From positions 682,001-746,000 of the forward strand of contig NZ_CP012945.1 of NCBI RefSeq assembly GCF_001402915.1: 64,000 bases of DNA, written 5' to 3'. The notes under the pieces are model-generated. The model saw nothing but the letters and a program-made list of their open reading frames with translations, had not been told where the DNA came from and did no database searches. The stretch comes from Devosia sp. A16 (GTDB taxonomy: Bacteria > Pseudomonadota > Alphaproteobacteria > Rhizobiales > Devosiaceae). This document shows positions 6,455-19,556 of this stretch, one piece after another (position 1 is the first letter of the stretch; each line of letters begins with the position of its first letter). The position numbers were made by a program, and so were the translations under genes.

Positions 6455-7219
6455 TCATCGCAGAAAAACGAAGTTGCTGCGATAGCTGTTCAAGCGGCCG
6501 AAGCGACCGGGCGAGCGCGTGAGCATCGCCGCCGCCTGTTCGGGCCCGCCCGGCTGCAGCCGGCCCGCCTCGTAGACGAAGCAGCCGAACCCCTGGCCGG
6601 CGAGCAGCGAGAATATCCCGGCATAGTCGGGGTTCAGGCGCGCTTCGATTTCGATGATCAGCAGCGCAGGGCGATCGGCGAGCAGCCGCGGCATGCCCTC
6701 CAGCACGGCCTGCTCGGCCCCCTCCACATCGATCTTGGCGACGATGGCCCCGGGGCGGCCCATCAATCCGAGCCGTTCGCAGATGCCGTCGACGGTTTCC
6801 ACCCGACAGGCCTGCTGCCAGCCCTTACCATCGGCCGCGGCGCCGAGCCGGGCCAGCGGCCGACGCCAGCCGCCCGCCCCGGCATCGACCAGCAGCGCCG
6901 TCCCGGCGGCGCGGCCCGCCGCCGCCTCGACCACCTGCGCGCTCGCGCCGAAACTGCGCCGCAGGTACTCGGCCTGTTCGTGGTTGGGTTCGACCAGCAC
7001 CACCTCGTCGCAGTGCCGCATGAGCTTGCGCCCGTAAGGGCCTGTACCGGCTCCGATATCGATGCCGAGAGCGGCGCGATCCGGCCAATGCGGCATCACG
7101 CGGCGCACCGCGCGCGGCAGCCCGGCGACCAGTTCGAGCTCGGCCTCGTGAGCGTGGTAGGCCAGCGTGAACAGGTGGTGGTGCAGCCGGGCCAGCCCGG
7201 TGAACTCGAGCAGCTTCAT
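6455..7219 (-). CDS. FkbM family methyltransferase
   Basis: 254 residues from ATG 7219 (MKLLEFTGLARL); an upstream start at 7291 is open but its leader looks non-conserved and would run further into the divergent gene region. The SAM-binding motif I is GIDIGAGTGPYGRKLM and the acidic strand after it is VVLVEPN. The FkbM-type segment AIVAKIDVEGAEQAVLEGM, with the DVEG motif, is clear. Family members O-methylate sugars or polyketides; in a glycan locus a sugar methyl ether is likely. It lies 43 bp upstream of the epimerase gene and probably belongs to the same minus-strand operon. Confidence 0.85.
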   Translation of the reverse strand: MKLLEFTGLARLHHHLFTLAYHAHEAELELVAGLPRAVRRVMPHWPDRAALGIDIGAGTGPYGRKLMRHCDEVVLVEPNHEQAEYLRRSFGASAQVVEAAAGRAAGTALLVDAGAGGWRRPLARLGAAADGKGWQQACRVETVDGICERLGLMGRPGAIVAKIDVEGAEQAVLEGMPRLLADRPALLIIEIEARLNPDYAGIFSLLAGQGFGCFVYEAGRLQPGGPEQAAAMLTRSPGRFGRLNSYRSNFVFLR

Positions 7220-7343
7220 CGCCTCCCCGCTTGGCGCGCCATTCGCCATACCTTTCCCGAGCGGCGCAGCGAAGACAACCCGGCTGGACAAATTCCTCGC
7301 GGGCCTGTCTGCTCGGCGCCAATCCCGGCCGGCTCATCCCGCA

Positions 7344-9149
7344 TTGTCCTCGCAATCCGCCCGCACCGCAGAGCCCATCGTCGCGCCGCGCCGGCAGCCG
7401 CGCCGGCTGCTCGTGGCGCTCGCCTGCCTGCTGATCGTGATGCTGGGCGCCTCGATGCGGCTGTCGGGCAGCGACTGGGATCGAGGCTCGAACCTGCATC
7501 CCGACGAGCGTCACCTGATGTTCGTGATCACCGACACCATGCGCGACTGGCAGGCCCTCCCGCCCGACGGCATGTCGCCCTACAGCCTGTGGTTCGCCAC
7601 CGGCAAGTCGCCGCTCGATCCGCGCCGCAACGGCCAGATCTATGTTTACGGCGAGTTTCCGCATCTCGTGACGGCCCTCGTTGCGCGCCTCACCGGCACC
7701 GACGGCTGGCCGCCCATCCTCAGGCTGGGGCGGACGCTTGGGGCGATCGTCGATGCCTACACCATCCTCGCGGTCTTCCTGCTCTCGATGCAGGTGCTGC
7801 GCAGCGGCGGCGCGGCGCTTGCCGCCGCCGCGTTCTACGCCTTCTGTCCGCTGGCGCTGCAGCTGTCCAATTTCTTTGCCGTCGACATCTGGCTCACCGG
7901 CGCCGCCGCCTGGTGCACGCTCGCCGCCACCATCGGGCTTGGCGCCCGGACGCGGCGCGCCGCGCTCGCCTGGTTCGTGCTCGCCGGCGCGCTTGCCGGC
8001 CTGGCGCTCGCCTGCAAGCTCCCCGGCGTGCTGCTGGGTGGCGTGGTGGGTGGCGCCGCGCTGCTGCGCTTCTGGCGGGATGGCCGCGAGCGCAGCATGA
8101 AATGGCTGGTGCTGTGCGCGGTGTCCTCGCTGGCCGCGGCCATGCTGGCGCTGCGGCTTGCCGCGCCGTTCACCTTCCTGGGCCCCGGGTTTTTCGGCTT
8201 CGACATCACGCCGGCGGTGATCGCCGGCTATGTGGAGATGTCGCGCCTGGTGCTCGATTTCGGCTTTCCGCCGAACTGGCAGTGGATGACCGGTTACGGC
8301 CCGCTCAATGCGCTCGTGGACATGGCCGTATGGGGCCTGGGGCCCATCATCGGCTTGGCGCTGGTCCTGGGCGCCTTCGTCGTGGCCCGCCGCCGCGCGC
8401 TTTGGGCCGCGGCGGCGCCCCTGCTCGTGCTGATCGTCCCCTTCTCGGCCTACTGGCTGGCGGGCGCCGCGCCGGCGCTTCGCTATGCGGCGCCCATCCT
8501 GCCGGCGCTTTGCGTGCTGGCGGCCGGCGGCGCACTTGTCACGCCCCGCGGCGTGTCGCTGCTGGCGGGGATCGGCGCCTTCGTCTGGGGCACCGGCATG
8601 GTCGGCCTGCATGGCGGGCTCCATAGCCGCATCGCCGCCTCAGAGTGGATGTGGCAGAATCTGCCGGCGGGCACCGTGGTCGCCAACGAGTCGTCCTGGG
8701 ATGACGGCCTGCCGAGCGCCGTCCGCGTCAATGCCCGCGGCGACCTGCTGTACGGCGATGTCGGTGGTCACTTCACCTCGGTGGCGCTCGCCATCGACCT
8801 GCCGGACAACGCCGAAAAAGCCCACACCATCGCCACGCGACTGGCCGGGGCTGACGTGCTTGCCATCTCGAGCGAACGGATGCGCAAGCCAATCCTGGCG
8901 CTGGGCAGCCGCTTCCCCATGACCACCCGATATTACCGCATGCTCGAGAGCGGCGAGCTCTGCTTTGCGCTCATCTACCAGAACAAGCCCGGCTACACCG
9001 TGCTCGGCCAGCGCTTCGACGACAGCTGGGCCCAGGAGCCGTGGAGCATCTACGACCACCCGCAGGTCGAGATTTACCGCAAGCTCGATTGCTACGACGC
9101 CGGCAAGGTCGAGGAGGCGCTGCTTCAGGCCTTGCCCAAGGGATCGTGA
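7344..9149 (+). CDS. GT-C fold membrane glycosyltransferase (PMT/ArnT-like) no. 1
   Basis: A polytopic membrane protein of about 600 residues. The start is uncertain: the only in-frame ATG (7167) would extend it far into the divergent methyltransferase gene, so TTG 7344 or GTG 7413 is more likely. A basic N-terminus precedes TM1 (LLVALACLLIVMLG). The first periplasmic loop carries SDWDRG followed by HPDERH, the acidic motif typical of lipid-phosphate-sugar-dependent GT-C enzymes. Many Ala/Leu membrane helices follow, then a soluble C-terminal region ending in YDHPQVEIYRKLDCY. The same DWD...PDE motif occurs in the gene at 16961. It would move a sugar from a polyprenyl-phosphate carrier to an acceptor in the periplasm. 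It overlaps the convergent glf gene by 25 bp. Confidence 0.82.
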   Translation: MSSQSARTAEPIVAPRRQPRRLLVALACLLIVMLGASMRLSGSDWDRGSNLHPDERHLMFVITDTMRDWQALPPDGMSPYSLWFATGKSPLDPRRNGQIYVYGEFPHLVTALVARLTGTDGWPPILRLGRTLGAIVDAYTILAVFLLSMQVLRSGGAALAAAAFYAFCPLALQLSNFFAVDIWLTGAAAWCTLAATIGLGARTRRAALAWFVLAGALAGLALACKLPGVLLGGVVGGAALLRFWRDGRERSMKWLVLCAVSSLAAAMLALRLAAPFTFLGPGFFGFDITPAVIAGYVEMSRLVLDFGFPPNWQWMTGYGPLNALVDMAVWGLGPIIGLALVLGAFVVARRRALWAAAAPLLVLIVPFSAYWLAGAAPALRYAAPILPALCVLAAGGALVTPRGVSLLAGIGAFVWGTGMVGLHGGLHSRIAASEWMWQNLPAGTVVANESSWDDGLPSAVRVNARGDLLYGDVGGHFTSVALAIDLPDNAEKAHTIATRLAGADVLAISSERMRKPILALGSRFPMTTRYYRMLESGELCFALIYQNKPGYTVLGQRFDDSWAQEPWSIYDHPQVEIYRKLDCYDAGKVEEALLQALPKGS

Positions 9150-10282
9150 ACGAACGCCGGCGGCGCCGCATGGGCGCCGAAGGCCGCGATGGCGACCCGG
9201 GCGGTCTCCAGCGCCCTGCCGATCGCGGCGTCCATGTCGATATAGGCATAGCAGCCGAGCCGGCCGAGGAAGGTGATGCCATGCTCGGCGTTGGCAAGGC
9301 CGACATAATCGCGCAACAGCCGCTCGTCGCCGGCGAGACGCAGCGGGTAATAGGGCGATTTTCCCGGCTCGGTGGCCTCCGAGAACTCGCGCCAGACGAT
9401 GCTGGTATCGCTGAGCGGTTTCCGCCACGGCGACAGATGGCGGTGCTCGGTCATGCGCGTCCACGGCACGTCGGGATCGGGGAAGTTCATCACCGGGCAG
9501 CCCAGGGCGTCGCCCTCGAGCCGGAGTTCCTCGAAGCGCAGGCTGCGATAACCCAGGCGGCCGAGGCGATAACCGAAATAGCGATCGAGCGGCCCCGAAT
9601 AGAATGTGTGGTCGAACCGCTCCTCCACCGCTTCGGCCGCGGTGCCAAGACGCAGCTCGATCCGCGGATGCTCGAGCATCCGCTGCGTCAGCGCGGTGTA
9701 GCCATCGCGCGGCATCGCCTGGCGCTGATGGTGGAAATAGTTGATGTCATAGGAGAAGCGCAGGGGCAGCCGGCGAAGGATGGCGGCCGGCAGGTTGCGA
9801 TCGTCGGTGCCCCACTGCTTGGAGGTATAGTGCCGGAAGAACGCCTCGTAGAGCGCCTCGCCGACGAGGCTCAGCCCCTGCTCGCGGAAATTGGCGGGCA
9901 CCGCGATCGGCTCCGCCTGCGCGGCGACGAAGGCGCGCGCCTCGGCCGGCGTCATCGCGGTGCCGAAGAACTGGTTGATGGTGAGGAGGTTGACCGGCAG
10001 GCTGAACACCTTGCCCCTGACCGTCGAATAGACCGAGTGACGATAAGGGACCCACTCGCCGAACCGCCCCACGAACGCCCAGACCGCATCGTTGTCGGTG
10101 TGGAAGATGTGCGGGCCATAGCGGTGCACCATGATGCCGGTGCTCTCGTCGAGCGAGGTGTGGCAGTTGCCCGCCACGTGGTCGCGCTCGTCGATGACGA
10201 GGCAGGCGAAGCCGGCCTCCGCCAGCTCGCGGGCCACGACTGCGCCACTGAGGCCGGCGCCGACAACGAGAATTCTGCCCAC
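9125..10282 (-). CDS. glf: UDP-galactopyranose mutase
   Basis: 385 residues, normal Glf length, from a GTG start. The FAD-binding GAGLSGA is at 8-14, followed by GNCHTSLDESTGIMVHRYGPHIFHTD, the flavin and substrate region of Glf, and NQFFG and TSKQWGTD further on. The enzyme converts UDP-galactopyranose to UDP-galactofuranose in the cytoplasm using reduced FAD, supplying galactofuranosyl residues for surface glycans. It stands between two plus-strand glycosyltransferase genes. A galactofuranosyltransferase of the GlfT type was not recognised; the GT4 or GT2 enzyme here could do that job. Confidence 0.95.
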   Translation of the reverse strand: MGRILVVGAGLSGAVVARELAEAGFACLVIDERDHVAGNCHTSLDESTGIMVHRYGPHIFHTDNDAVWAFVGRFGEWVPYRHSVYSTVRGKVFSLPVNLLTINQFFGTAMTPAEARAFVAAQAEPIAVPANFREQGLSLVGEALYEAFFRHYTSKQWGTDDRNLPAAILRRLPLRFSYDINYFHHQRQAMPRDGYTALTQRMLEHPRIELRLGTAAEAVEERFDHTFYSGPLDRYFGYRLGRLGYRSLRFEELRLEGDALGCPVMNFPDPDVPWTRMTEHRHLSPWRKPLSDTSIVWREFSEATEPGKSPYYPLRLAGDERLLRDYVGLANAEHGITFLGRLGCYAYIDMDAAIGRALETARVAIAAFGAHAAPPAFVHDPLGKA

Positions 10283-10463
10283 TGGAACGCCCCGGCCCGT
10301 AACCTTGTTGTCGCCCGTCGAAACCGCGTGCTAGCAATTGCATGACTCTGGCGGGTTCGCCAAGCCGAGCACGTGGCCGCCCGGCGCCCCCTGTCGAGAT
10401 GACCCGGTCGCGCGAGCTCAGGCGCAACGGGCGGGCGTTCGGATTGTGGCTGACGATAGGTTC

Positions 10464-11195
10464 ATGGCGCATCTTTCGGTTATCATCCCCGCATATAATG
10501 AGGCAGAGAACATCATCGGTGCGCTGGAGGACGTGTTTCGCGACGTCGCTCCGGTGGTGCCGGACCTCGAAGTGATCGTCGTCAACGACGGCAGCCGCGA
10601 TGACACCGCCACCCTCGCCGGCAAATTTGCGGCCGCCGAACCGCGCGTCAGGGTGGTGACCCAGCCCAACCAGGGGCACGGCCCGGCGCTGAGCAACGGC
10701 CTCGGCATGGCGACCGGGGAATGGGTGCTGCTGCTCGACAGCGACCGGCAGGCATCGCTCGAGGATTTCGCCGCCCATTGGGCCCTCACCCGCCAGTACG
10801 ATGTGATCCTGGGCCTGCGCCGCCCGCGCTCCGACCCGTTCTATCGGCAGATCATCTCGTTCTTCATGCGAGTGCTGCTGCTGGCGGCGCTGGGGCAGAA
10901 CGTCAAGGATGGCGGCGCGCCCTACAAGCTGCTGCGCCGCGCGGTATGGAACGAGGCGCGATCGGCCATGCGGCCCAACTGCTGGATCCCCTCGGTCCTG
11001 CTTGCGGCGGCCGCGCTCGAGCGCGATGGCCTGAAGGTGATCCAGTTGCCGATCCGCCACCGGGCCCGCGACCACGGCCCCTCGACGCTGAACCTCAAGC
11101 GGCTGGGAGCCTTCTGCCGCGAAGGCGTCTCGGACATCCTCTTTTATCGGGCCCATTCGAGAAAACCGGCCCCCGCCCCGGTCGCCAATGATTGA
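10464..11195 (+). CDS. Glycosyltransferase family 2 (polyprenyl-phosphate sugar synthase-like)
   Basis: 243 residues from ATG 10464; an upstream ATG (10338) would add a leader unlike the family. The GT-A core is complete: LSVIIPAYNEAENI, the nucleotide-binding NDGSRDDT at 41-48, and the metal-binding LDSDRQ around 91-96. There are no obvious membrane helices, and the short length resembles dolichyl- or polyprenyl-phosphate sugar synthases. Such enzymes charge a lipid carrier with a sugar, the substrate that GT-C enzymes use. It overlaps the downstream DUF2298 gene by 8 bp and begins the candidate glycoprotein operon. Confidence 0.9.
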   Translation: MAHLSVIIPAYNEAENIIGALEDVFRDVAPVVPDLEVIVVNDGSRDDTATLAGKFAAAEPRVRVVTQPNQGHGPALSNGLGMATGEWVLLLDSDRQASLEDFAAHWALTRQYDVILGLRRPRSDPFYRQIISFFMRVLLLAALGQNVKDGGAPYKLLRRAVWNEARSAMRPNCWIPSVLLAAAALERDGLKVIQLPIRHRARDHGPSTLNLKRLGAFCREGVSDILFYRAHSRKPAPAPVAND

Positions 11196-13257
11196 CGGCG
11201 CAAGCCTCGCCTCCCTGCTGTCGGTCTGGCTGGCTGTGGCGGTTTGCGGGGTGCTCGCCTGGCCGCTGTCCGCCTGGCTGTTCCCCACCGATCCCGACCG
11301 CGGCTATCTCGCGGCCAAGCCGCTGGCCTGGATCGCCGGCTCCTATGCCGCCTGGCTTGCGGCGGTGTTCGGCGTCGGCTTTGCCCAATATGGCTGGCTC
11401 GTCGGGCTCGCCGGCATCGCCGCGCTGAGCGCCGCGGCGCTCCCCGCGGTGCGCCGGCTCGGCTTTCCCGGTTTCCGCCGGGTGCTCACCCTCGAGACCG
11501 GGTTTCTGCTGCTGCTCCTCATCGGGGCCTTGATCAAGGCCCGGGTGCCCGACATTCACGGGCTCGAGAAGTTCATGGATTTCGGCTTCGTCAACGCCGC
11601 GCTGCGCACCGAGGCGATGCCGCCGCTCGATCCGTGGTGGGGTGACGAGCCCATCAACTACTACTATTTCGGCCATGTCGCGGCGGCCTGGCTGATCGGC
11701 CTCGCCCGGGTGCCCGCCGACCACGGCTTCAACCTGATGATCGGCCTGATCTTCGCCTTTACCGGGGCCCTCGCCTACCGGCTGGTGTCGGGGACGCTCG
11801 CGGCGGGCGGGACCGGTCGCCGCCTCGCTGCCGTCAGCGGCGGGCTCGCGGCGGTGCTGGTGACGCTGGGGGGCAATTTCCACAGTGTGCTCTACGGCCC
11901 GTTCCGGGCCTTCAGCCCCACCACCTATACCCGCGGCTATTACTATCCGGATTCGACGCGCTTCGTCGGCTTCGATCCCCCGACGATGGATCACGGGTTC
12001 ACCGAAATGCCGGCCTATGGCTTCGCCGTCGGCGACCTGCACGCCCATGTCCTGAACCTGCCCGTGGCGCTGCTCATCGCCCTGCTGCTCGTCCGCATCC
12101 TGCAGCGCGAGTGGTCGGCGGGCGCAGTCGGCGGCGTCCGCCTGGTCGAAGTCGGGGCGCTCGGGCTGCTGTTTGCCGTCACCGCCATGAGCAACAGCTG
12201 GGACGCCATCTCCTACGGGGTGCTGATGCTGCTGGTCGGCCTGCTGCTGCTGTTCCGCTGGGGCTTCACTGCGCCGCTGCGCTCCCTCCGCCTGGTCGGC
12301 GCCGCGCTGCTGGTGCTGGCGCTCAGCGGCGCCGCGGCGGCGCCGTTCCTGCTGCAGTTCAAGCCGATATCGTCCGCACTGGTCCTCTCCGACGGGCAGA
12401 CGCCGCTGTGGCAGCTCGCGGTGCTCTATGCACACCTCATCGGCCCGGGCCTGGTGCTGCTGCTCGTCACCCCGTTCTGGCGCCGGCGAGATGGCCGCTG
12501 GGTGGTGGCGGCCACGCTGGCGGTGCTCGCCATCATCCTGATCGCGCTGCCCGAGATCGCCTACGTCAAGGACATCTACGGCTACGACCACCGGCGCGCC
12601 AACACCATGTTCAAGTTCACCTTCGAGGCACAGCCGATGGCCTTCCTCGCCGGCGCGCTGCTGGTAGGCCTGCTGTTCGGCAGCCGGCGCCGGTGGGCGC
12701 CGGTGCTGGGCACGGTGCTCGCCGTGCCGCTGGTCGCGACCCTGGCGTTTGCCGGCGAGATCTATGGCGACACGCTCCGCAACCTCGACCGCACGACGTT
12801 TACGCTCGATGGCCTGCGCTTCATCGACCGCGATCACGGCGATGACCGCCCGCTGCTCGACTGGCTGAAGGGGCGCCCCCTCGGCTCGCGGCTGTTGCTC
12901 GTCGAGGCTCCGGGCGACAGCTACACCGATACCGGCCGCTTCGCCGCCCTGTCGGGCGTGCCGGCTTTGCTTGGGTGGCGGGGGCATGAATGGCTGTGGC
13001 GCGGCGACAACACAACGCCATACAAACGCTACGATGAAATCGCCGCATTCTACCAGGACACGGACTTCGCCAAGGCGTGCCAGTTCGTCCTCGCACACGG
13101 CGTAACCCACATTGCCATCGGCACAATCGAGCGCGAAGTGTTTCCTGAGCTCGCCGAAACTACTCTCGAACGACTGGGCCAGACGGTGGTAGAGAGTGGA
13201 TCTTCGCGGCTCATTGCAGTTGATCGCGCCAGGTGTGAGGCGCCGGGCGCTTCCTGA
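11188..13257 (+). CDS. DUF2298 (YYY) polytopic membrane protein, GT-C-like no. 2
   Basis: 689 residues with many hydrophobic helices. The segment FMDFGFVNAALRTEAMPPLDPW followed by PINYYYFGH (Tyr158-160) is the signature of the DUF2298 family, named YYY after this triplet. The family is known mainly from Chloroflexota and archaea and is thought to be GT-C-like; the reaction is not established. The C-terminal part (KACQFVLAHGVTHIAIG) resembles the soluble tails of large GT-C proteins. It overlaps the GT2 gene by 8 bp, suggesting that it uses a lipid-linked sugar made by that enzyme. Its presence in an alphaproteobacterial locus is unusual. Confidence 0.85.
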   Translation: MIDGASLASLLSVWLAVAVCGVLAWPLSAWLFPTDPDRGYLAAKPLAWIAGSYAAWLAAVFGVGFAQYGWLVGLAGIAALSAAALPAVRRLGFPGFRRVLTLETGFLLLLLIGALIKARVPDIHGLEKFMDFGFVNAALRTEAMPPLDPWWGDEPINYYYFGHVAAAWLIGLARVPADHGFNLMIGLIFAFTGALAYRLVSGTLAAGGTGRRLAAVSGGLAAVLVTLGGNFHSVLYGPFRAFSPTTYTRGYYYPDSTRFVGFDPPTMDHGFTEMPAYGFAVGDLHAHVLNLPVALLIALLLVRILQREWSAGAVGGVRLVEVGALGLLFAVTAMSNSWDAISYGVLMLLVGLLLLFRWGFTAPLRSLRLVGAALLVLALSGAAAAPFLLQFKPISSALVLSDGQTPLWQLAVLYAHLIGPGLVLLLVTPFWRRRDGRWVVAATLAVLAIILIALPEIAYVKDIYGYDHRRANTMFKFTFEAQPMAFLAGALLVGLLFGSRRRWAPVLGTVLAVPLVATLAFAGEIYGDTLRNLDRTTFTLDGLRFIDRDHGDDRPLLDWLKGRPLGSRLLLVEAPGDSYTDTGRFAALSGVPALLGWRGHEWLWRGDNTTPYKRYDEIAAFYQDTDFAKACQFVLAHGVTHIAIGTIEREVFPELAETTLERLGQTVVESGSSRLIAVDRARCEAPGAS

Positions 13258-13325: not shown

Positions 13326-14330
13326 TTGTTCATTATGCCAATCAGGCTCTCCGCGATGCAGCGCATGCTATGCGTGGTGCTGGCTGCACTGGTGTTCGCC
13401 CTTGCCGGCGCGGCGCCGGCGGCAGCGCGAAACGTGCCCGGTTCGGCCGCCGTGGCGCAGGCCGAGGTCGACCAGGCGGTCGGATCGTCCATCCTCGACT
13501 CCCTGCTGACCGCGACGCCGATGTGCGAGAACTATCTCGACCGGCCTGCCGACGACCGGCGGCGGGAACCCTGCACCTCGGGCTTCGCCATCGGCGGCGG
13601 CGTGCTGGCGCTGCAGGATGCGCCGGACGGCTACAAGTTCGACTACTCGGCGGCCTATTCGACGATGGTGATGACGCAGCGGCTGACCAATGGCGTGAGC
13701 GTCTTCGGCGGGCTGATCGGCGAGGCCGGCTCGGGCGTGCTCGACTACAATGACGGCACGCTCGACCACTATGGCTTCGGCGCCGCCGCCGGCGCCTCGT
13801 TCGAGCTCGGCAGCGATGCCAAATTCGCCATCGTCGGCTCGGCCGAATGGCTGCACTATTCCACCACGCGATCCGACGGCCTCTACGAGGGCGAGTACGA
13901 TGCGGCCCGCTACATGGCCGATGCGCGGCTCAGCGGCATCCTCGAAGGCGACTGGTTCTTCATCGAATATGGCGGCGACCTGCGGCTGATCCACCAGGAG
14001 AATGCCGCCTATACCGAGTTCTCGATGGGCTCGCCGTTCGCCGACGTCGCTGCCACGAGCTTCACCTCGCTGACCGCCATCGGCAACCTCAAGCTCGGCG
14101 TCCCGATGGGCGCGCTCACCCCATATCTCGAGGCCACCGGCTATCTGGGGCTCTATCGCGATGGCGACATCGATACCGTCGGCATCGATGACCAGCTGAC
14201 GGGCCGGCTCGGAGTGGGCCTCAATGCCGAGCTCGAAGGTGGCGTGCTGTCGCTGCGGACCGGCGCCTATTTCGACGGCGACGGCTACAAGGGCGCCGAT
14301 GCCGGCGTCAACTACTCAGCGCGCTTCTAG
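13326..14330 (+). CDS. Secreted outer-membrane beta-barrel protein, unknown function
   Basis: 334 residues as read from 13326; in-frame ATGs at 13335 and 13356 are alternatives. A signal peptide is clear: MQRMLCVVLAALVFALAG with an Ala-rich cleavage site near APAAARN. The mature part alternates polar and aromatic residues in many Gly/Tyr-rich strands (for example GFAIGGGVLAL, YGFGAAAGASFEL, YLEATGYLGLY) and ends with Ser-Ala-Arg-Phe, a C-terminal aromatic typical of outer-membrane barrels. A Cys pair (MCENYL and PCTSGF) lies in the mature N-terminal part. It resembles autotransporter-type barrels without a recognisable passenger. Its place in the glycan operon suggests a role in export or as a substrate, but that is inference. 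Confidence 0.7.
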   Translation: MFIMPIRLSAMQRMLCVVLAALVFALAGAAPAAARNVPGSAAVAQAEVDQAVGSSILDSLLTATPMCENYLDRPADDRRREPCTSGFAIGGGVLALQDAPDGYKFDYSAAYSTMVMTQRLTNGVSVFGGLIGEAGSGVLDYNDGTLDHYGFGAAAGASFELGSDAKFAIVGSAEWLHYSTTRSDGLYEGEYDAARYMADARLSGILEGDWFFIEYGGDLRLIHQENAAYTEFSMGSPFADVAATSFTSLTAIGNLKLGVPMGALTPYLEATGYLGLYRDGDIDTVGIDDQLTGRLGVGLNAELEGGVLSLRTGAYFDGDGYKGADAGVNYSARF

Positions 14331-14332
14331 CC

Positions 14333-15274
14333 GTGAGCTCCATCTCATCCATCGGCGACGAGGAAATCCGGGGGCAGTTGCCCCCGCGTTTTCGTGTCAC
14401 CGCCGGATTGCTGCTGCGCATCGCCGTTTCGACCGGCCTGCTTGCGGCGGCGTTCTGGCTGACCTCGGACAAGCTCGACTGGAGCCAGCTGGCCCGGCTC
14501 GACCTTCCCACCATCGCCATCTCGGCCGCATTGTCGCTGGCGATCGTCTGGTTGCTGGCCTGGCGCTGGCTCAAGGTCACGCGGCTGGTGATCCCTGAAG
14601 CTACCGCCCTTCCCCGCTTCGGCACCTTCGTGGCGCAGACCTGGCTGGGGCTGGCCGCCAACCAGGTGCTGCCCTCGATCGTGGCGGGCGACGCGCTGCG
14701 CATCGGCCTGCTGGCGCGACAGAACCTGCCGCTTGGGTCGGCCACGGGCTCGGTCCTGCTCGACCGGGTGTTCGGGCTGGTCGGGCTTGCCGTGCTGACG
14801 GTCGCCAGTGCCTTCCTCCTGGCGCCGGACTTCGCCATCCCGTCACTGGCGGTGGCGGCGATCGTGCTCGGCGGCACGACTCTGCTCGCCGTGCTGTGGC
14901 GCCTGTTCGGCTCCCGGTTTCGCGCCATCCTGCCACTCCATCACGTCACCCCGGCGACCGGCGCCGCCCTCGTGGCCATGGCGATGGCCGCGCACCTTGC
15001 CAATATCGCGGTGTTCCTCGTCGTGGCGCATGCGCTGGGCGCGGACCTGCCGCTGCTGCCCACCATCGCCGTGATGTGCGCCGTGCTGCTGGTTGGTGTG
15101 CTGCCCATCTCCGTCGCCGGCTGGGGCGTCAGGGAGCTGGCGCTCGTCCAGGCGCTGGGGCATATCGGTGTGGCGCCCGACACCATCATTCTGGCATCGG
15201 TAACTTATGGCCTTGTCCTGTTCATGATGCAGGCTCCGGGTTTCCTGCTGCTTGCGAGGAGAGATCGTCCGTGA
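14333..15274 (+). CDS. Flippase-like integral membrane protein (LPG synthase TM-domain family)
   Basis: 313 residues from a GTG two bases after the preceding stop. About eight hydrophobic helices are visible, with the family's C-terminal motif [14 protein letters not shown] and the [20 protein letters not shown] loop typical of the UPF0104/lysylphosphatidylglycerol synthase transmembrane family. The soluble synthase domain is absent, as in stand-alone members that are often encoded among glycan genes. A lipid-linked sugar flippase or accessory role is plausible but unproven. Its stop codon overlaps the next GTG in a GTGA, so it is translationally coupled to the Thr/Pro-repeat gene. Confidence 0.85.
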
Positions 15275-15840
15275 CGACCAGATTCCGCCCTCTGCATGTG
15301 CTCGTCATTGCCACGGCGCTCGCCGGCGGCATCGGTGTCCTGCCGGTCCTTGGTCAGGCGACGGACACGCCCACGGCCACGCCGACGGATACTCCGACCA
15401 ACACGCCGACGGACACGCCGACCCCGACGCCGGAACCGCCGACCAATACCCCGACCGATACGCCGACGGCGACCCCAACCAACACTCCGACCAATACGCC
15501 GACCGACACCCCGACCGGCACACCCACCAATACCCCGACCGACACGCCGACGGGGACGCCCACCAACACCCCGACCAACACGCCAACCGATACCCCGACT
15601 GGAACACCCACCAATACTCCAACCGACACGCCGACGGGGACACCCACCAACACGCCGACCGATACCCCGACAGGCACGCCGACCAACACGCCGACCTCGA
15701 CCCTGACGTCGACGCCGGTGAACGTTGCCAACGTGCCGGGCGGGGTCTCGCAGTTCAGCGTGCCGGCGCTGCTCCTCGTAGTGATCGGCGCCTTCGTGGC
15801 GCTGTTGCTGTGGGCGCGGCAGGCGGACCGTAGGGAATGA
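15271..15840 (+). CDS. Thr/Pro-repeat surface protein with exosortase-type C-terminal sorting signal
   Basis: 189 residues from GTG 15271 (GTGA overlap with the upstream stop). Residues 1-30 are a signal peptide ([16 protein letters not shown], probable cleavage after GQA). Residues 31-149 are an almost pure tandem array of TPT-type units, with a 12-residue period [12 protein letters not shown], rich in potential O-glycosylation sites. The tail has [19 protein letters not shown] (164-182) followed by the basic RQADRRE, the tripartite layout of exosortase sorting signals: motif, helix, basic end. The last ATGA is shared with the exosortase-like gene. The repeat also keeps other frames open, but only this one has the signal peptide, tail and coupling at both ends. 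Likely a rigid glycosylated cell-surface stalk. Confidence 0.78.
15360..15710 (+). repeat. Tandem coding repeat (36-bp period) in the Thr/Pro-repeat gene
   Basis: An array of degenerate 6-bp (ACNCCG) steps organised in about 36-bp higher-order units encoding [12 protein letters not shown]. Units differ mainly at third codon positions, so the array is old enough to have drifted or is under selection for the protein and not the DNA. Such arrays expand and contract by slippage or unequal recombination, so copy number probably varies between strains. There are no spacers, so this is not a CRISPR array. Confidence 0.9.
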
Positions 15841-16961
15841 TCGAACGGCGCGCTGCGCCCGACCGAGTGCCGATCCCTCGTCTGGTCTACCTCTGGGCAA
15901 CCGCCGCCATCGTCCTGCTCGCAGGCTTTCTGCTGCTCGAGGCGCCTCCGGTTACTGCGGCGTTCGGTGCGGTGGCCGAACTCCTCGCGCTTTGCGCCGC
16001 CGCGATCCTCAGGGCGGTCGGCTACCCGATCGTGCTCAGCGGCATCGAGCTGCGCGACAGCGTGTCCGGCCACGCCATCGCGGTCACCCAGGCCTGCGAC
16101 GGCAGTTCGCTGGTGATCGCCGCCATCGCAGTGAGCCTGTGGCTGTGGAAGGGCGGCCGGCACGACCTGCTGCTGCTGGCGGCGACCGCGCTGATTGCCA
16201 TATTCTCCTTCAACCTGCTGCGTGTGGTCCTGCTGTTCGTGTCGATCGGCGCGCCCGGGCTGATGGACCTGCAGCACCTCTATGTCGCCCCGCTGCTCAG
16301 TGCAGTACTGGTGGCCGGTCTCGTCCTCGTCGGTCTTGGCCTGCCGCTGCGCGATGCGGTGCGCTCGCCGATCCTGTGGCTGGCGGTCGCGGCGGTCGCG
16401 GCGATCGCCTGGTACCCGGTGGCGGAGATGCTCACTTGCGCCACGGTGGTGCCGATCGCCAATACCCTGCTTTGGATTGCCCCCGGTGAGCTCGAACAGG
16501 CAATCGTCTGCGGCGCCGGCAACGCCACGGTTTCGACCGCCGCGGTCGTCGGCTACGAGCCGCTGCGGGTGCTCGATGCGGGGTTCTATCCCAGCGACTT
16601 CACCCTGGCGCTGCCGCTGGTCGTCGCCTCGCTGGCGGTGGTCGGCAAACCCGGGCCGGTCATCCGCGGAGCGCTGCTTGCCGTTGCCCTGATGGCGGTG
16701 GCGATGGCGCTGGGCGCCATGACGGCAAGCCAGGACGCCGCCATCGGCGCGTCGGTCACGACGCTGATGGGGCGGGGCTTTTCCGCCCCCTTCGCGCCGA
16801 TGGGCGAGATGCTGCTGGCGCTGCTGAAGGCCGCGCAGAACGCGCTGGTGCATTTCAACCTGTTCGTCCTGCCGCTGGCGCTGCTCTACCGGAAGCCGGC
16901 GCCGCTGCCGACCCGCGCCCAACCCCCTGTCCGATCCCCCAACCGAGGAAGACGCCGCTGA
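15837..16961 (+). CDS. Exosortase/archaeosortase-like transmembrane cysteine protease
   Basis: 374 residues, about eight or more membrane helices. The exosortase catalytic triad is readable: Cys87 in [10 protein letters not shown], Arg129 in FNLLRVVLL and His147 in LQHLYV, each at the end of a helix as in EpsH/XrtA-type enzymes. The usual ACSG is ACDG here, and Arg to His spacing is short (18), so it is a divergent subtype. Exosortases cleave C-terminal tripartite signals at the inner membrane and pass the protein on to the surface. A long C-terminal extension with extra helices (around 175-350) is not part of the minimal core. It overlaps the Thr/Pro-repeat gene by 4 bp, pointing to a dedicated enzyme-substrate pair. 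Confidence 0.75.
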
Positions 16962-18646
16962 TGTTCGAGACGGCGCGCCGCGAGGCAGACGCGCGCGAAT
17001 GGCTCTGGTTCGTGCTGGCGCTCGGCATGGCGCTGCGCCTGCTCGGGCTCGATTGGGACCACGGCCTGCTCTTCAACCCCGACGAGGGCAATATCGGCCG
17101 CGCCGCCGCCGCGCTGCGCTTTCCCGATCAGCTGGTTTCGGGCTTCAGCGCCTATAATGGCCTCGCGCTCTATCTGCCGCGGCTGCTGGCCGAGCTGCTT
17201 GCCCTGTTCGGCTTCGGGGCGCCCACCAATCCCGCCAGCATCGTGTTTGCCGGTCGCATCCTCTCGGCGCTGTCCGCCTGCCTGTCGCTGGCGCTCCTCG
17301 GCGCCATCGCCCGCCGGCTTTGGTCGTTCGAGGTCACTCTGTTCGTGCTGGTGGTCGCCGGTTTTACCCCGGCGCTCATCCAGACCGCCCATTTCGCCAC
17401 TACCGAAGCGGCGCTGATCCTCTGCCTGGTGCTGCTGCTGTGGCTGACGCTTGAGCATATGACCGGTCGCTTGTCGCTAATTGCCTATGGCGCGCTGGTC
17501 GGGGTGACGCTCGGCGTCGGCTTCGGTTTCAAGACGACGGCGCTGATCTTCGCCGTCGTGCCGCTGGTGGCCGTGACCCAGACCACGCTGCTCAAGGGAC
17601 GTTGGCTGCCGGCGCTCGGCGCGGGCGGGCTCGCGATCGTCATCATTGCCCTGCTGGGGCTGGCATCGACGCCGCAGATCTGGGCCACCCCGGCCGCCTA
17701 TTTCGACACCATGCGCTTCGAAGGCGGTGTGGTGGCGGGTACCGAAGATGTGTTCTGGACCTACCAGTTCGCCGGCCGCGTGCCCGGACTGTTCGAGCTG
17801 GCACAGCTGCCCTGGACCATGGGCCCGGCATTGGCGGCTCTGTCGCTCGTCGGCTTCGCCGGGCTTTGTGTCGCCATCGTGCGGAGGCGCGAGACGGCGC
17901 TGTTGCTGGCCCCCGCCGCGCTGTTCTCGCTGATCTACGCAGCGGTGATCGTCAGCTGGTACGCCAGGTTCGTCCGCTATGAAACGCCGCTGCTGCCCAC
18001 CATGGTGCTGTTCGCGGCCTATGCGGTGTCCTCGCTTCCCTTTGCGCTGCTGCGGCGCGGCATCATGGTGCTGACGGCACTCGTCACCGTCGCCGTGGGC
18101 GCCCTGCAACTGCTGGTCTACCTCAATCCGGACCCGCGCATCGCCGCCTGGGACTGGCTGTCGCCGCACCTGACCGACGGCCAGCATATCGTCGTCGAGC
18201 CCGTGGATGTCGGCTCGGCCTATTGGTATGGGCCGAAGCGAACTCCGTTGCAGGTGGTGCCGCTGATCGAGCCATCCGGCGCCGCCAAGCTGACGCGGAT
18301 CGCCGACACTCTCGCCACCGGCGACTGGATGATCGTGGCGAGCCGCCGCCACCATGCAGTGCTGCCCAGGCTGCAGCAGCGCTTCCCCGAGATGTGCGGT
18401 TACTATGACGCGCTGTGGTCGGGCCGTCTGGGCTACGAGGTGGTGGCCCGCTTCACGCGGCGTCCCCCGCTGCCGCAGATCCTGTCGCCCGAAATCTGGG
18501 CCGAGGAGACGTTCACCGTCTTCGACTCCCCCGAAGTCTACGTGCTGCGCAACGCCCGCCACCTGCCGGTCGCGGAGTTGCTCGGAGAAGTAAGCGCCGT
18601 CTCGCCGGCCTGCGACGGCGACGAGGTGCCTAAACCGCCAAGATGA
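16961..18646 (+). CDS. GT-C fold membrane glycosyltransferase (PMT/ArnT-like) no. 3
   Basis: 561 residues, start ATG sharing one base with the exosortase-like stop. TM1 is followed by LDWDHGLLFNPDEGN (residues 30-44), matching the DWD...PDE motif of the gene at 7344; Asp41-Glu42 is the likely catalytic or metal region. Many hydrophobic helices follow, and the C-terminal soluble part contains EETFTVFDSPEVYVLRNAR, like the tail of the other copy. It should transfer a sugar from a polyprenyl-phosphate donor in the periplasm. Its position directly after the exosortase-like gene and Thr-rich substrate suggests protein O-glycosylation, an inference. It converges on and overlaps the UbiA-family gene by 17 bp. 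Confidence 0.83.
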   Translation: MFETARREADAREWLWFVLALGMALRLLGLDWDHGLLFNPDEGNIGRAAAALRFPDQLVSGFSAYNGLALYLPRLLAELLALFGFGAPTNPASIVFAGRILSALSACLSLALLGAIARRLWSFEVTLFVLVVAGFTPALIQTAHFATTEAALILCLVLLLWLTLEHMTGRLSLIAYGALVGVTLGVGFGFKTTALIFAVVPLVAVTQTTLLKGRWLPALGAGGLAIVIIALLGLASTPQIWATPAAYFDTMRFEGGVVAGTEDVFWTYQFAGRVPGLFELAQLPWTMGPALAALSLVGFAGLCVAIVRRRETALLLAPAALFSLIYAAVIVSWYARFVRYETPLLPTMVLFAAYAVSSLPFALLRRGIMVLTALVTVAVGALQLLVYLNPDPRIAAWDWLSPHLTDGQHIVVEPVDVGSAYWYGPKRTPLQVVPLIEPSGAAKLTRIADTLATGDWMIVASRRHHAVLPRLQQRFPEMCGYYDALWSGRLGYEVVARFTRRPPLPQILSPEIWAEETFTVFDSPEVYVLRNARHLPVAELLGEVSAVSPACDGDEVPKPPR

Positions 18647-19556
18647 TGCTCGCGACCACCGCGATGGCGAGCCCGAGGCTGATGGGATCGGACGTCGCGA
18701 CCACCACCGGATCGCCATGCAGCCTGCCGGCCGCCGCGCGCCGCAGCATGTGGGCCAGCCAGACCGCGAGCAAGGCCGTCGACAGCCACAGCCAGTCGGG
18801 TTGCCGGTAGACGTAGATGTCTCCGGCCCTGAGCGAGATGTAAGCCGCGAGCACGGCAATCGCCACCGTGCCGCAAAGGATGGCGCCGCGCATCAGCGCG
18901 GCCGCATCGCCCGGCCCGTAGGCCCGCCCCGGCACCGCCTCGCCATGCGCCCGATCGCTGGTGACGACCTCATCCAGCCGCTTGGCCAGCGCCAGCGACA
19001 GGAACAGGCAGCAGCCAAAGGCGAACAGCCAGCCCGACACGACGATGTCGGAGGCAACGCCGCCGATCTGCAGGCGGAGCGCAAACAGCAGGGCCAGCCC
19101 ACACACGTCGATGACCGGCAGGCGCTTCAGCCACCGGCTATAGGCCGCGGTCAGCGCCAGGTAGGCGGCGACGAACGCTGCGGCAGCCGGCGAGATCAGG
19201 TAGGCGAGCGCCAGCGAGCCGGCAGCCAGCGCCGATGCAACCGCCAGCGCCTGGCGCGGATCGATCAGGCCGAGCGTGATCGGCCGCGTCCGCTTGCTGG
19301 CGTGAGCGCGATCCGAAGCGAGGTCGCGCACGTCGTTGACCAGGTAGCCGGCCGACGCCGCGAGACAGCAGACGACGAATGCGGCCGCAAGGCTCATGAG
19401 CAGCGACGGGGTGGGGGCGGCGTGGCCGAACACCATGGGGGCGGCAACCAGCAGGTTCTTGACCCAGTGGGCAGGCCGCAGGGCCGTCAGCCAGTGACGG
19501 AACAGCTCAGTTGCTGAACGCAGTTCGAGACCGTCGCTCACCCGATTTGCCCCCAA
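18630..19556 (-). CDS. UbiA family: decaprenyl-phosphate phosphoribosyltransferase-like
   Basis: 308 residues from TTG 19556; GTG 19541 five codons later is an alternative. The Asp-rich prenyl-diphosphate motif is NDVRDLASDRAHASKRTRP (Asn74, Asp75, Asp78, Asp82), very close to the pattern of mycobacterial Rv3806c-type DPPR synthases, and RPAHWVKNLLV near residue 27 also fits that branch. About eight helices are seen. The known enzyme transfers phosphoribose from PRPP to decaprenyl phosphate, the first step to decaprenyl-phosphoryl arabinose used by membrane glycosyltransferases. The partners DprE1/DprE2 and the phosphatase are not in the window. Beside glf and three GT-C-like genes it suggests pentose-containing surface glycans. 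Confidence 0.8.
   Translation of the reverse strand: MGANRVSDGLELRSATELFRHWLTALRPAHWVKNLLVAAPMVFGHAAPTPSLLMSLAAAFVVCCLAASAGYLVNDVRDLASDRAHASKRTRPITLGLIDPRQALAVASALAAGSLALAYLISPAAAAFVAAYLALTAAYSRWLKRLPVIDVCGLALLFALRLQIGGVASDIVVSGWLFAFGCCLFLSLALAKRLDEVVTSDRAHGEAVPGRAYGPGDAAALMRGAILCGTVAIAVLAAYISLRAGDIYVYRQPDWLWLSTALLAVWLAHMLRRAAAGRLHGDPVVVATSDPISLGLAIAVVASIILAV

What the first reader, a model, noticed from the sequence alone, without database searches (positions are those of the whole stretch)
15271..16961. A Thr/Pro-repeat protein and a divergent exosortase-like enzyme encoded as a coupled pair
The repeat protein has a signal peptide, about 120 residues of TPT-type repeats and a C-terminus with Val-Pro, hydrophobic helix and RQADRRE. 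The next gene shares its ATGA and has Cys87, Arg129 and His147 in exosortase-like contexts. A one-to-one substrate and sorting enzyme encoded this tightly is a candidate new exosortase class. The ACDG active site and short Arg-His spacing differ from common subtypes.
Basis: partly seen in the sequence, partly recalled or inferred. Interest (0 to 1): 0.88.

Follow-up and report, generated by a model that had tools for sequence, protein, structure and literature searches.

The report
Exosortase-like enzyme and its predicted substrate
A bacterial gene cluster appears to pair a surface protein made of threonine/proline repeats with its own membrane sorting enzyme, from an uncatalogued branch near exosortase H that seems to carry a usually separate partner protein fused on.

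Summary
A secreted Thr/Pro-repeat protein (15271-15840) and a membrane enzyme (15837-16961) overlap by ATGA. The enzyme passes the general exosortase signature (TIGR04178, 25.0 vs 23 bits) but no subtype model. Searched alone it found no credible relative; the neighbouring DUF2298 gene led to relatives, full-length in four genomes and a broken fragment in a fifth. In all five intact cases, window included, the same gene cluster encodes a protein ending [VL]PG(A)G...[VIL]P-helix-WAR[RQ], although its outer part diverges; the gene is adjacent to the enzyme in three and two genes away in two. CDG, N..R and H are invariant. The catalytic half groups with exosortase H but scores far below its cut-off. 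The second half resembles the separate exosortase H-associated membrane protein beyond 100 of 100 shuffles, though ordinary HMM searches miss it. Best reading: an exosortase H-like enzyme, probably fused to its companion, with its own substrate in a surface-glycosylation cluster. Arg-His spacing is normal for exosortase H, and gene overlaps are not confined to the pair. One-to-one pairing was tested in 17% of the genome.

The parts
15271..15840 (+). Thr/Pro-repeat secreted protein, predicted substrate (189 aa, GTG start)
15730..15837 (+). C-terminal sorting tail of the repeat protein: NVPGG...VP, hydrophobic helix, WARQADRRE
   Evidence: same kind of tail in 5 of 5 clusters with an intact enzyme
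15837..16961 (+). Exosortase-like enzyme (374 aa)
   Evidence: TIGR04178 25.0 bits vs cut-off 23; alignment A9 of five
15837..16343 (+). Catalytic half (residues 1-169), groups with exosortase H; Cys87 codon 16095-16097, Arg129 codon 16221-16223, His147 codon 16275-16277
16344..16958 (+). C-terminal membrane half (residues 170-374), resembles exosortase H-associated membrane protein NF041730
   Evidence: hhalign E 3.7e-4, score above 100 of 100 block shuffles; hmmsearch not significant
16961..18646 (+). PMT_2-type glycosyltransferase, shares 1 nt with the enzyme stop
   Evidence: PF13231 29.9 bits vs 26.1; relatives in L077, L078
14333..15274 (+). Flippase-like membrane protein (LPG_synthase_TM), shares 4 nt with the repeat-protein start
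   Evidence: PF03706 102.6 bits
13326..14330 (+). Predicted outer-membrane beta-barrel with N[VI]PGS after the signal peptide
   Evidence: alignment of 7; PF03797 above cut-off in L077, L168, L169 but no Pfam match in the window protein
11188..13257 (+). DUF2298 / Chlor_Arch_YYY membrane protein
   Evidence: PF10060 258.7 bits, TIGR03662 344.2 bits
10338..11195 (+). Family 2 glycosyltransferase (exact start uncertain)
   Evidence: PF00535 94.4 bits
7167..9149 (+). Second PMT_2-type glycosyltransferase (exact start uncertain)
   Evidence: PF13231 26.4 bits vs 26.1
9125..10282 (-). UDP-galactopyranose mutase-like protein
   Evidence: PF03275 212.8 bits; TIGR00031 299.6 vs cut-off 303.75
18630..19556 (-). 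UbiA-family prenyltransferase
   Evidence: PF01040 84 bits; a UbiA-like gene also lies near the cluster in L078 and L169

Best explanation
This is a protein-sorting system with its own substrate. The repeat protein is exported by Sec and held in the inner membrane by its C-terminal helix. Membrane enzymes of the same cluster build and flip lipid-linked sugars and probably glycosylate its Thr-rich stalk. The exosortase-like enzyme recognises the [VL]PG...[VIL]P-helix-WAR tail, cleaves near it with Cys87 (helped by Arg129 and His147), and releases the stalk or passes it to an acceptor for surface anchoring. The enzyme belongs to a lineage next to exosortase H in which the catalytic half is joined to a domain like the separately encoded exosortase H-associated membrane protein. 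Shown here: exosortase homology, invariant Cys/Arg/His, conserved tail, shared cluster in five genomes, grouping with exosortase H. Supported but not proven: the fusion. Inferred: glycosylation, cleavage, transfer and final location.
For: TIGR04178 (cut-off 23): window 25.0, L077 26.1, L168 29.3, L169 28.9 pass; L078 21.0 does not. Motif Cys, Asp, Gly, Asn, Arg, His invariant in 5 of 5. Catalytic half vs exosortase H: 98% probability, E 1.3e-13, above 30 of 30 shuffles; its HMM finds the five exosortase H proteins at E 7e-21 to 1.2e-14 among 2,108 six-frame proteins, with other exosortases next. Tree: the five enzymes form one side of a branch (99/100) inside a ten-row group with exosortase H (100/99). 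Tail conserved in 5 of 5 although the L077 ectodomain has only 2 TPT triplets and that protein has 10 Cys. Repeat gene adjacent to the enzyme in window, L077, L078, and two genes downstream in L168, L169. C-terminal half vs seven XrtH_assoc proteins: local score 31.7 vs shuffle maximum 23.4, global 21.1 vs 15.9, reached by 0 of 100 shuffles each. One tail match among 7,425 open frames in 864 kb of the own genome.
Against: No evidence of cleavage. No Pfam exosortase match in the window protein. Fusion claim: hhalign probability is 0.3% with two companion sequences, 13.9% with seven, and 36% local / 13% global with five enzymes against seven. HMM searches miss it: the companion HMM finds none of the three enzymes then in the set at E <= 10, and in reverse seven open frames outrank the first companion protein (E 2.8), two of them (L002, L003) fetched because they resemble this very region. 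Of the cross controls, catalytic half vs companion was reached locally by 3 of 100 shuffles, so that control is not wholly flat; the others were reached by 18 to 92. AlphaFold model moderate (mean pLDDT 67.5), 0 PDB fold matches at E <= 0.001. Tree: window is a long branch, and a warning names long branches meeting (L066 with window); no XrtM, XrtX, XrtY or cyanoexosortase C were sampled, and the window enzyme itself scores slightly better to XrtM and cyanoexosortase C than to exosortase H. One-to-one tested in 17% of the own genome only. L076's contig ends after the flippase and its genome gives no enzyme match.
Confidence: 0.72

Rival explanations
1. The repeat protein is simply a stalk anchored by its C-terminal helix, and the exosortase-like enzyme acts on other proteins or is a non-proteolytic membrane subunit of the glycosylation machinery.
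For: No cleavage shown; the cluster is mostly glycosyltransferase and flippase genes; no Pfam exosortase match in the window enzyme.
Against: Cys/Arg/His invariant in 5 of 5; the tail, including the segment before the helix, is conserved although the ectodomain is not; no second tail protein in 17% of the genome.
Confidence: 0.17
2. The C-terminal half is an unrelated membrane domain, not an exosortase H-associated protein; the enzyme is then an exosortase with an unknown extra domain.
For: Neither HMM direction detects the relation; hhalign probability 0.3 to 36% depending on depth.
Against: Collinear global match over 163 columns and scores reached by 0 of 100 shuffles; with three enzymes the result was the same, 27.8 vs maximum 19.7; the separate gene follows exosortase H directly in L158 and L159.
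Confidence: 0.3
3. A plain member of exosortase H that drifted.
For: Exosortase H is the nearest group in profile and tree among those sampled.
Against: 23.8 to 46.5 bits against a cut-off of 86 in all five; CDG, not CNG; none of the five tails reaches the cut-off of any NCBIfam model.
Confidence: 0.1

Closest known systems
Exosortase H (TIGR04177) with exosortase H-associated membrane protein (NF041730)
   Same: Nearest profile and tree neighbour among those sampled; same N..R-19-H layout; companion protein resembles the C-terminal half here
   Different: Companion is a separate gene there; CNG instead of CDG; scores far below the exosortase H cut-off. Its pairing with IPTL-CTERM signals is recalled, not from a call
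PEP-CTERM / EpsH exosortases
   Same: Membrane enzyme plus Sec-exported proteins with a motif-helix tail and enrichment in residues linked to glycosylation (PMC12188702, passages seen)
   Different: No PEP motif in these tails; one known substrate; no PF09721 hit in the window protein
Archaeosortase ArtA / PGF-CTERM
   Same: Active-site cysteine enzyme cutting a tripartite tail of a surface protein (PMC11980579, passages seen)
   Different: Archaeal; different motif; ArtA processing is followed by prenylation, the acceptor here is unknown
Rhombosortase / GlyGly-CTERM and myxosortase / MYXO-CTERM
   Same: Tripartite C-terminal tag; the L168 tail gives sub-threshold matches to both signal models (9.3 of 15.5 and 9.5 of 20)
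   Different: Unrelated proteases (PMC11980579, passages); no cut-off reached

Membership tests
Exosortase/archaeosortase superfamily | TIGR04178 score above curated cut-off 23 | tested here: met
   Window 25.0; L077 26.1, L168 29.3, L169 28.9 pass, L078 21.0 does not
Exosortase/archaeosortase superfamily | Conserved Cys, Arg, His | tested here: met
   5 of 5
Exosortase/archaeosortase superfamily | Pfam PF09721 match | tested here: not met
   None in window, L077, L168 or L169; L078 19.2 vs 25.7. The NCBIfam signature is met, so superfamily membership rests on that and the motifs
Exosortase/archaeosortase superfamily | Partner with signal peptide and motif-helix-basic tail | tested here: met
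   5 of 5 intact clusters; basic end weak in L168 and L169
Exosortase/archaeosortase superfamily | Cleavage of the tail | not testable with these tools
   Needs experiment
Exosortase H (TIGR04177) | Score above cut-off 86 | tested here: not met
   Window 24.1, L078 43.0, L077 46.5, L168 23.8, L169 38.8
Exosortase H (TIGR04177) | GCNG motif seen in the five exosortase H proteins compared | tested here: not met
   ACDG or VCDG in 5 of 5. Two of the five comparison proteins were confirmed with TIGR04177, three by alignment, 53-57% identical
Exosortase H-associated membrane protein (NF041730) | Model match above cut-off 35 | tested here: not met
   No NF041730 match listed for the window enzyme or four relatives; none in the own genome at E <= 1e-5
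Exosortase H-associated membrane protein (NF041730) | Profile-level homology | tested here: inconclusive
   E 3.7e-4, reached by 0 of 100 shuffles, but probability 36%; HMM search negative
Known C-terminal sorting domains in NCBIfam/Pfam | Tail matches a model at cut-off | tested here: not met
   NCBIfam, five tails: best TIGR01167 15.1 vs 15.9 (L077), Heimdall-CTERM 15.2 vs 24 (L169), none for window and L078. Pfam, four tails (L078 tail not given alone): none at cut-off

The most novel reading that the evidence does not exclude
The enzyme may ligate the stalk to a specific outer-membrane barrel. The cluster also encodes a predicted beta-barrel whose predicted mature start carries N[VI]PGS in 7 of 7 loci, echoing the VPG of the stalk's tail. 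If the barrel's amino end is the acceptor, this would be a Gram-negative exosortase that joins two defined proteins, as pilus sortases do (recalled). No result here tests it; the resemblance could be chance or a shared docking motif.
Probability: 0.06. Interest if true: 0.9.

Novelty: new variant of a known kind. Interest (0 to 1): 0.62.

Why it matters
What exosortases attach their substrates to is still open: the passages I saw say that they appear to act as transpeptidases (PMC11980579) and possibly link proteins to a polysaccharide or some other molecule (PMC12188702). A compact cluster with one recognisable substrate, one enzyme that seems to have its companion built in, and its own sugar-handling genes is a small unit that could be rebuilt in a laboratory strain. 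If the fusion is real, it also suggests that the exosortase H-associated protein is a working part of that enzyme rather than a bystander.

Tried and rejected
Enzyme alone as query: in the order 2 of 297 genomes matched, own and G158; in the class 2 of 385, own and G673; in the genus 1 of 19, own; plasmids none; genome contigs 32 and viral contigs 2 pattern matches, none confirmed. G158 (L002) and G673 (L003) are short weak hits (20.7 bits each) to the C-terminal half; I set them aside as chance without further study. TIGR04178 in the genus: 4 of 19 matched at E <= 1, own alone over cut-off, while 9 of 14 control genomes also matched at that loose limit; L005 is a different exosortase-like type, L006 showed nothing sensible, L007 was not followed. 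TIGR04178 in the class: 38 of 289 at E <= 0.01, 35 over cut-off; L068 and L069 are different types, L070 showed no exosortase-like gene in the part listed, G354 was not looked at. Internal duplication of the enzyme: not supported, 18 and 48 of 100 shuffles reach the score. Solved-structure sequence search: none. Fold search: 0 matches at E <= 0.001. A plus-strand reading at 9041-10345 was dropped; the gene is on the minus strand. It had been used as a query, so those rows reflect the opposite strand and are not counted. The tree used 30 of 35 loci L038-L072, those whose frames fit a motif pattern. Paper searches: no listing described this enzyme or tail; one search was too broad to tell (21,282 papers), and most subscription papers are not held. 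PMC11980579 and PMC12188702 were seen as passages, the others as listings; PMC3256604 is not held.

Full report
What is there. On the plus strand lie a family 2 glycosyltransferase (10338-11195), DUF2298 (11188-13257), a predicted beta-barrel (13326-14330), a flippase-like protein (14333-15274), the repeat protein (15271-15840), the enzyme (15837-16961) and a PMT_2 glycosyltransferase (16961-18646). Four of the six joints overlap by 1 to 8 nt. A second PMT_2 gene lies at 7167-9149, a UDP-galactopyranose mutase-like gene at 9125-10282 on the minus strand and a UbiA-type gene at 18630-19556 on the minus strand. That these form one operon is inferred from order, strand and overlaps.

The enzyme is an exosortase-superfamily protein: TIGR04178 25.0 bits against 23. 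No subtype reaches its cut-off (best cyanoexosortase C 27.1 of 225, XrtM 26.9 of 125, exosortase H 24.1 of 86), and Pfam gives no exosortase match.

Finding relatives. Queries with the enzyme alone gave nothing credible. DUF2298 is rare in the class sample: 1 of 240 genomes, the own one. A genome-contig scan with DUF2298 gave 262 related stretches, of which the best 80 were kept. Of these 80, L077 and L078 carry the enzyme, tail, beta-barrel, flippase and PMT genes; L076 has beta-barrel and flippase, and its contig then ends; no enzyme match was found elsewhere in its genome. The genomes of L090 and L109, also searched, gave exosortase H instead. With an alignment of three enzymes, 4 of 249 genomes in the order of L077's genome matched: itself, two further full-length cases (L168, L169) and a fragment (L170). 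In the family of L078's genome 1 of 69 matched, itself. So five full-length enzymes are known here.

The partner. In window, L077 and L078 the repeat-protein gene is directly upstream of the enzyme. In L168 and L169 the enzyme directly follows the beta-barrel gene and the repeat protein comes after PMT and DUF2298, two genes downstream. All five proteins end in [NSV][VL]PG(A)G, a short stretch, [VIL]P, a hydrophobic helix and WAR[RQ]. Ectodomains differ: Thr 45% in the window, 13% in L077, which has 10 Cys and 2 TPT triplets. A tail conserved against a diverging ectodomain, and a partnership that survives loss of adjacency, argue for a sorting signal read by this enzyme. In 864 kb of the own genome (17%), with 7,425 open frames of 60 codons or more, the repeat protein alone matches the tail profile (E 3.2e-21; next E 1.3).

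Relation to exosortase H. The catalytic half aligns with exosortase H at 98% probability, above 30 of 30 shuffles. In a tree of 40 rows the five enzymes form one side of a branch (99/100) within a group of ten with five exosortase H proteins (100/99); the root is for drawing only, the window row is a long branch, and XrtM, XrtX, XrtY and cyanoexosortase C were not sampled. Of the five exosortase H proteins, two were confirmed with TIGR04177 (193.4 and 212.4 bits) and three by alignment. Arg-His spacing is 18 or 19 here; there it is 19 in four and 25 in one; CDG replaces CNG.

The second half. A separate gene for the exosortase H-associated membrane protein (NF041730) follows exosortase H in L158 and L159; in the window's phylum NF041730 was found in 5 of 398 genomes, not in the own one. 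Residues from 170 on align with seven such proteins: local score 31.7 against a shuffle maximum of 23.4, global 21.1 against 15.9, 0 of 100 each; with three enzymes 27.8 against 19.7 and 18.6 against 13.5. Controls: catalytic half vs companion was reached by 3 of 100 shuffles locally and 43 globally, C-terminal half vs exosortase H by 92 and 21, half vs half by 18 and 48. Against the fusion, hhalign probability is 0.3% with two companions, 13.9% with seven and 36% with five enzymes, and plain HMM searches do not find the relation in either direction. I take a fusion as likely, not proven. AlphaFold (mean pLDDT 67.5, three sequences) and fold search decide nothing.

Mechanism. From what is known of exosortases, the tail would be cut at the Cys/Arg/His site after export. 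The glycosyltransferase-rich cluster suggests glycosylation of the Thr-rich stalk; this is inference. The barrel's N[VI]PGS, 7 of 7 loci, just after the predicted signal peptide, resembles the tail's VPG and is unexplained.

Verdict. The enzyme-substrate partnership is real at the level of sequence and gene order, and is best called an exosortase H-like variant, probably fused to its companion, with its own sorting signal: new as a variant, not as a kind.

Noticed in passing
window 13326-14330 and L076, L077, L078, L168, L169, L170: Predicted outer-membrane barrel with N[VI]PGS directly after the predicted signal peptide in 7 of 7 loci, similar to the VPG of the stalk tail.
   Followed up: partly
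L005/L071, L068, L069: A different exosortase-like type (CSSF or CSVL context; TIGR04178 18.0, 17.3 and 24.6 bits). In L005 and L069 a small protein with a GAPGP-helix-basic tail lies beside it; by my reading L068 and L069 also hold polysaccharide-export-like genes. Possibly another uncatalogued pair.
   Followed up: partly
L170 about 7910-8415: Broken copy of the enzyme, in two frames next to a transposase-like gene, with barrel and GT2-like genes upstream. No tail protein among the frames listed, but short frames were not all listed.
   Followed up: no
window 11188-13257: DUF2298 is rare in the class sample, 1 of 240 genomes, the own one, yet occurs with the same genes in L076, L077, L078; transfer of the cluster is one explanation. 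Genus relatives show no long DNA match over the cluster.
   Followed up: partly
L076 13132-14233: Contig ends just after the flippase, where the repeat gene would be expected; repeats may have broken the assembly.
   Followed up: no
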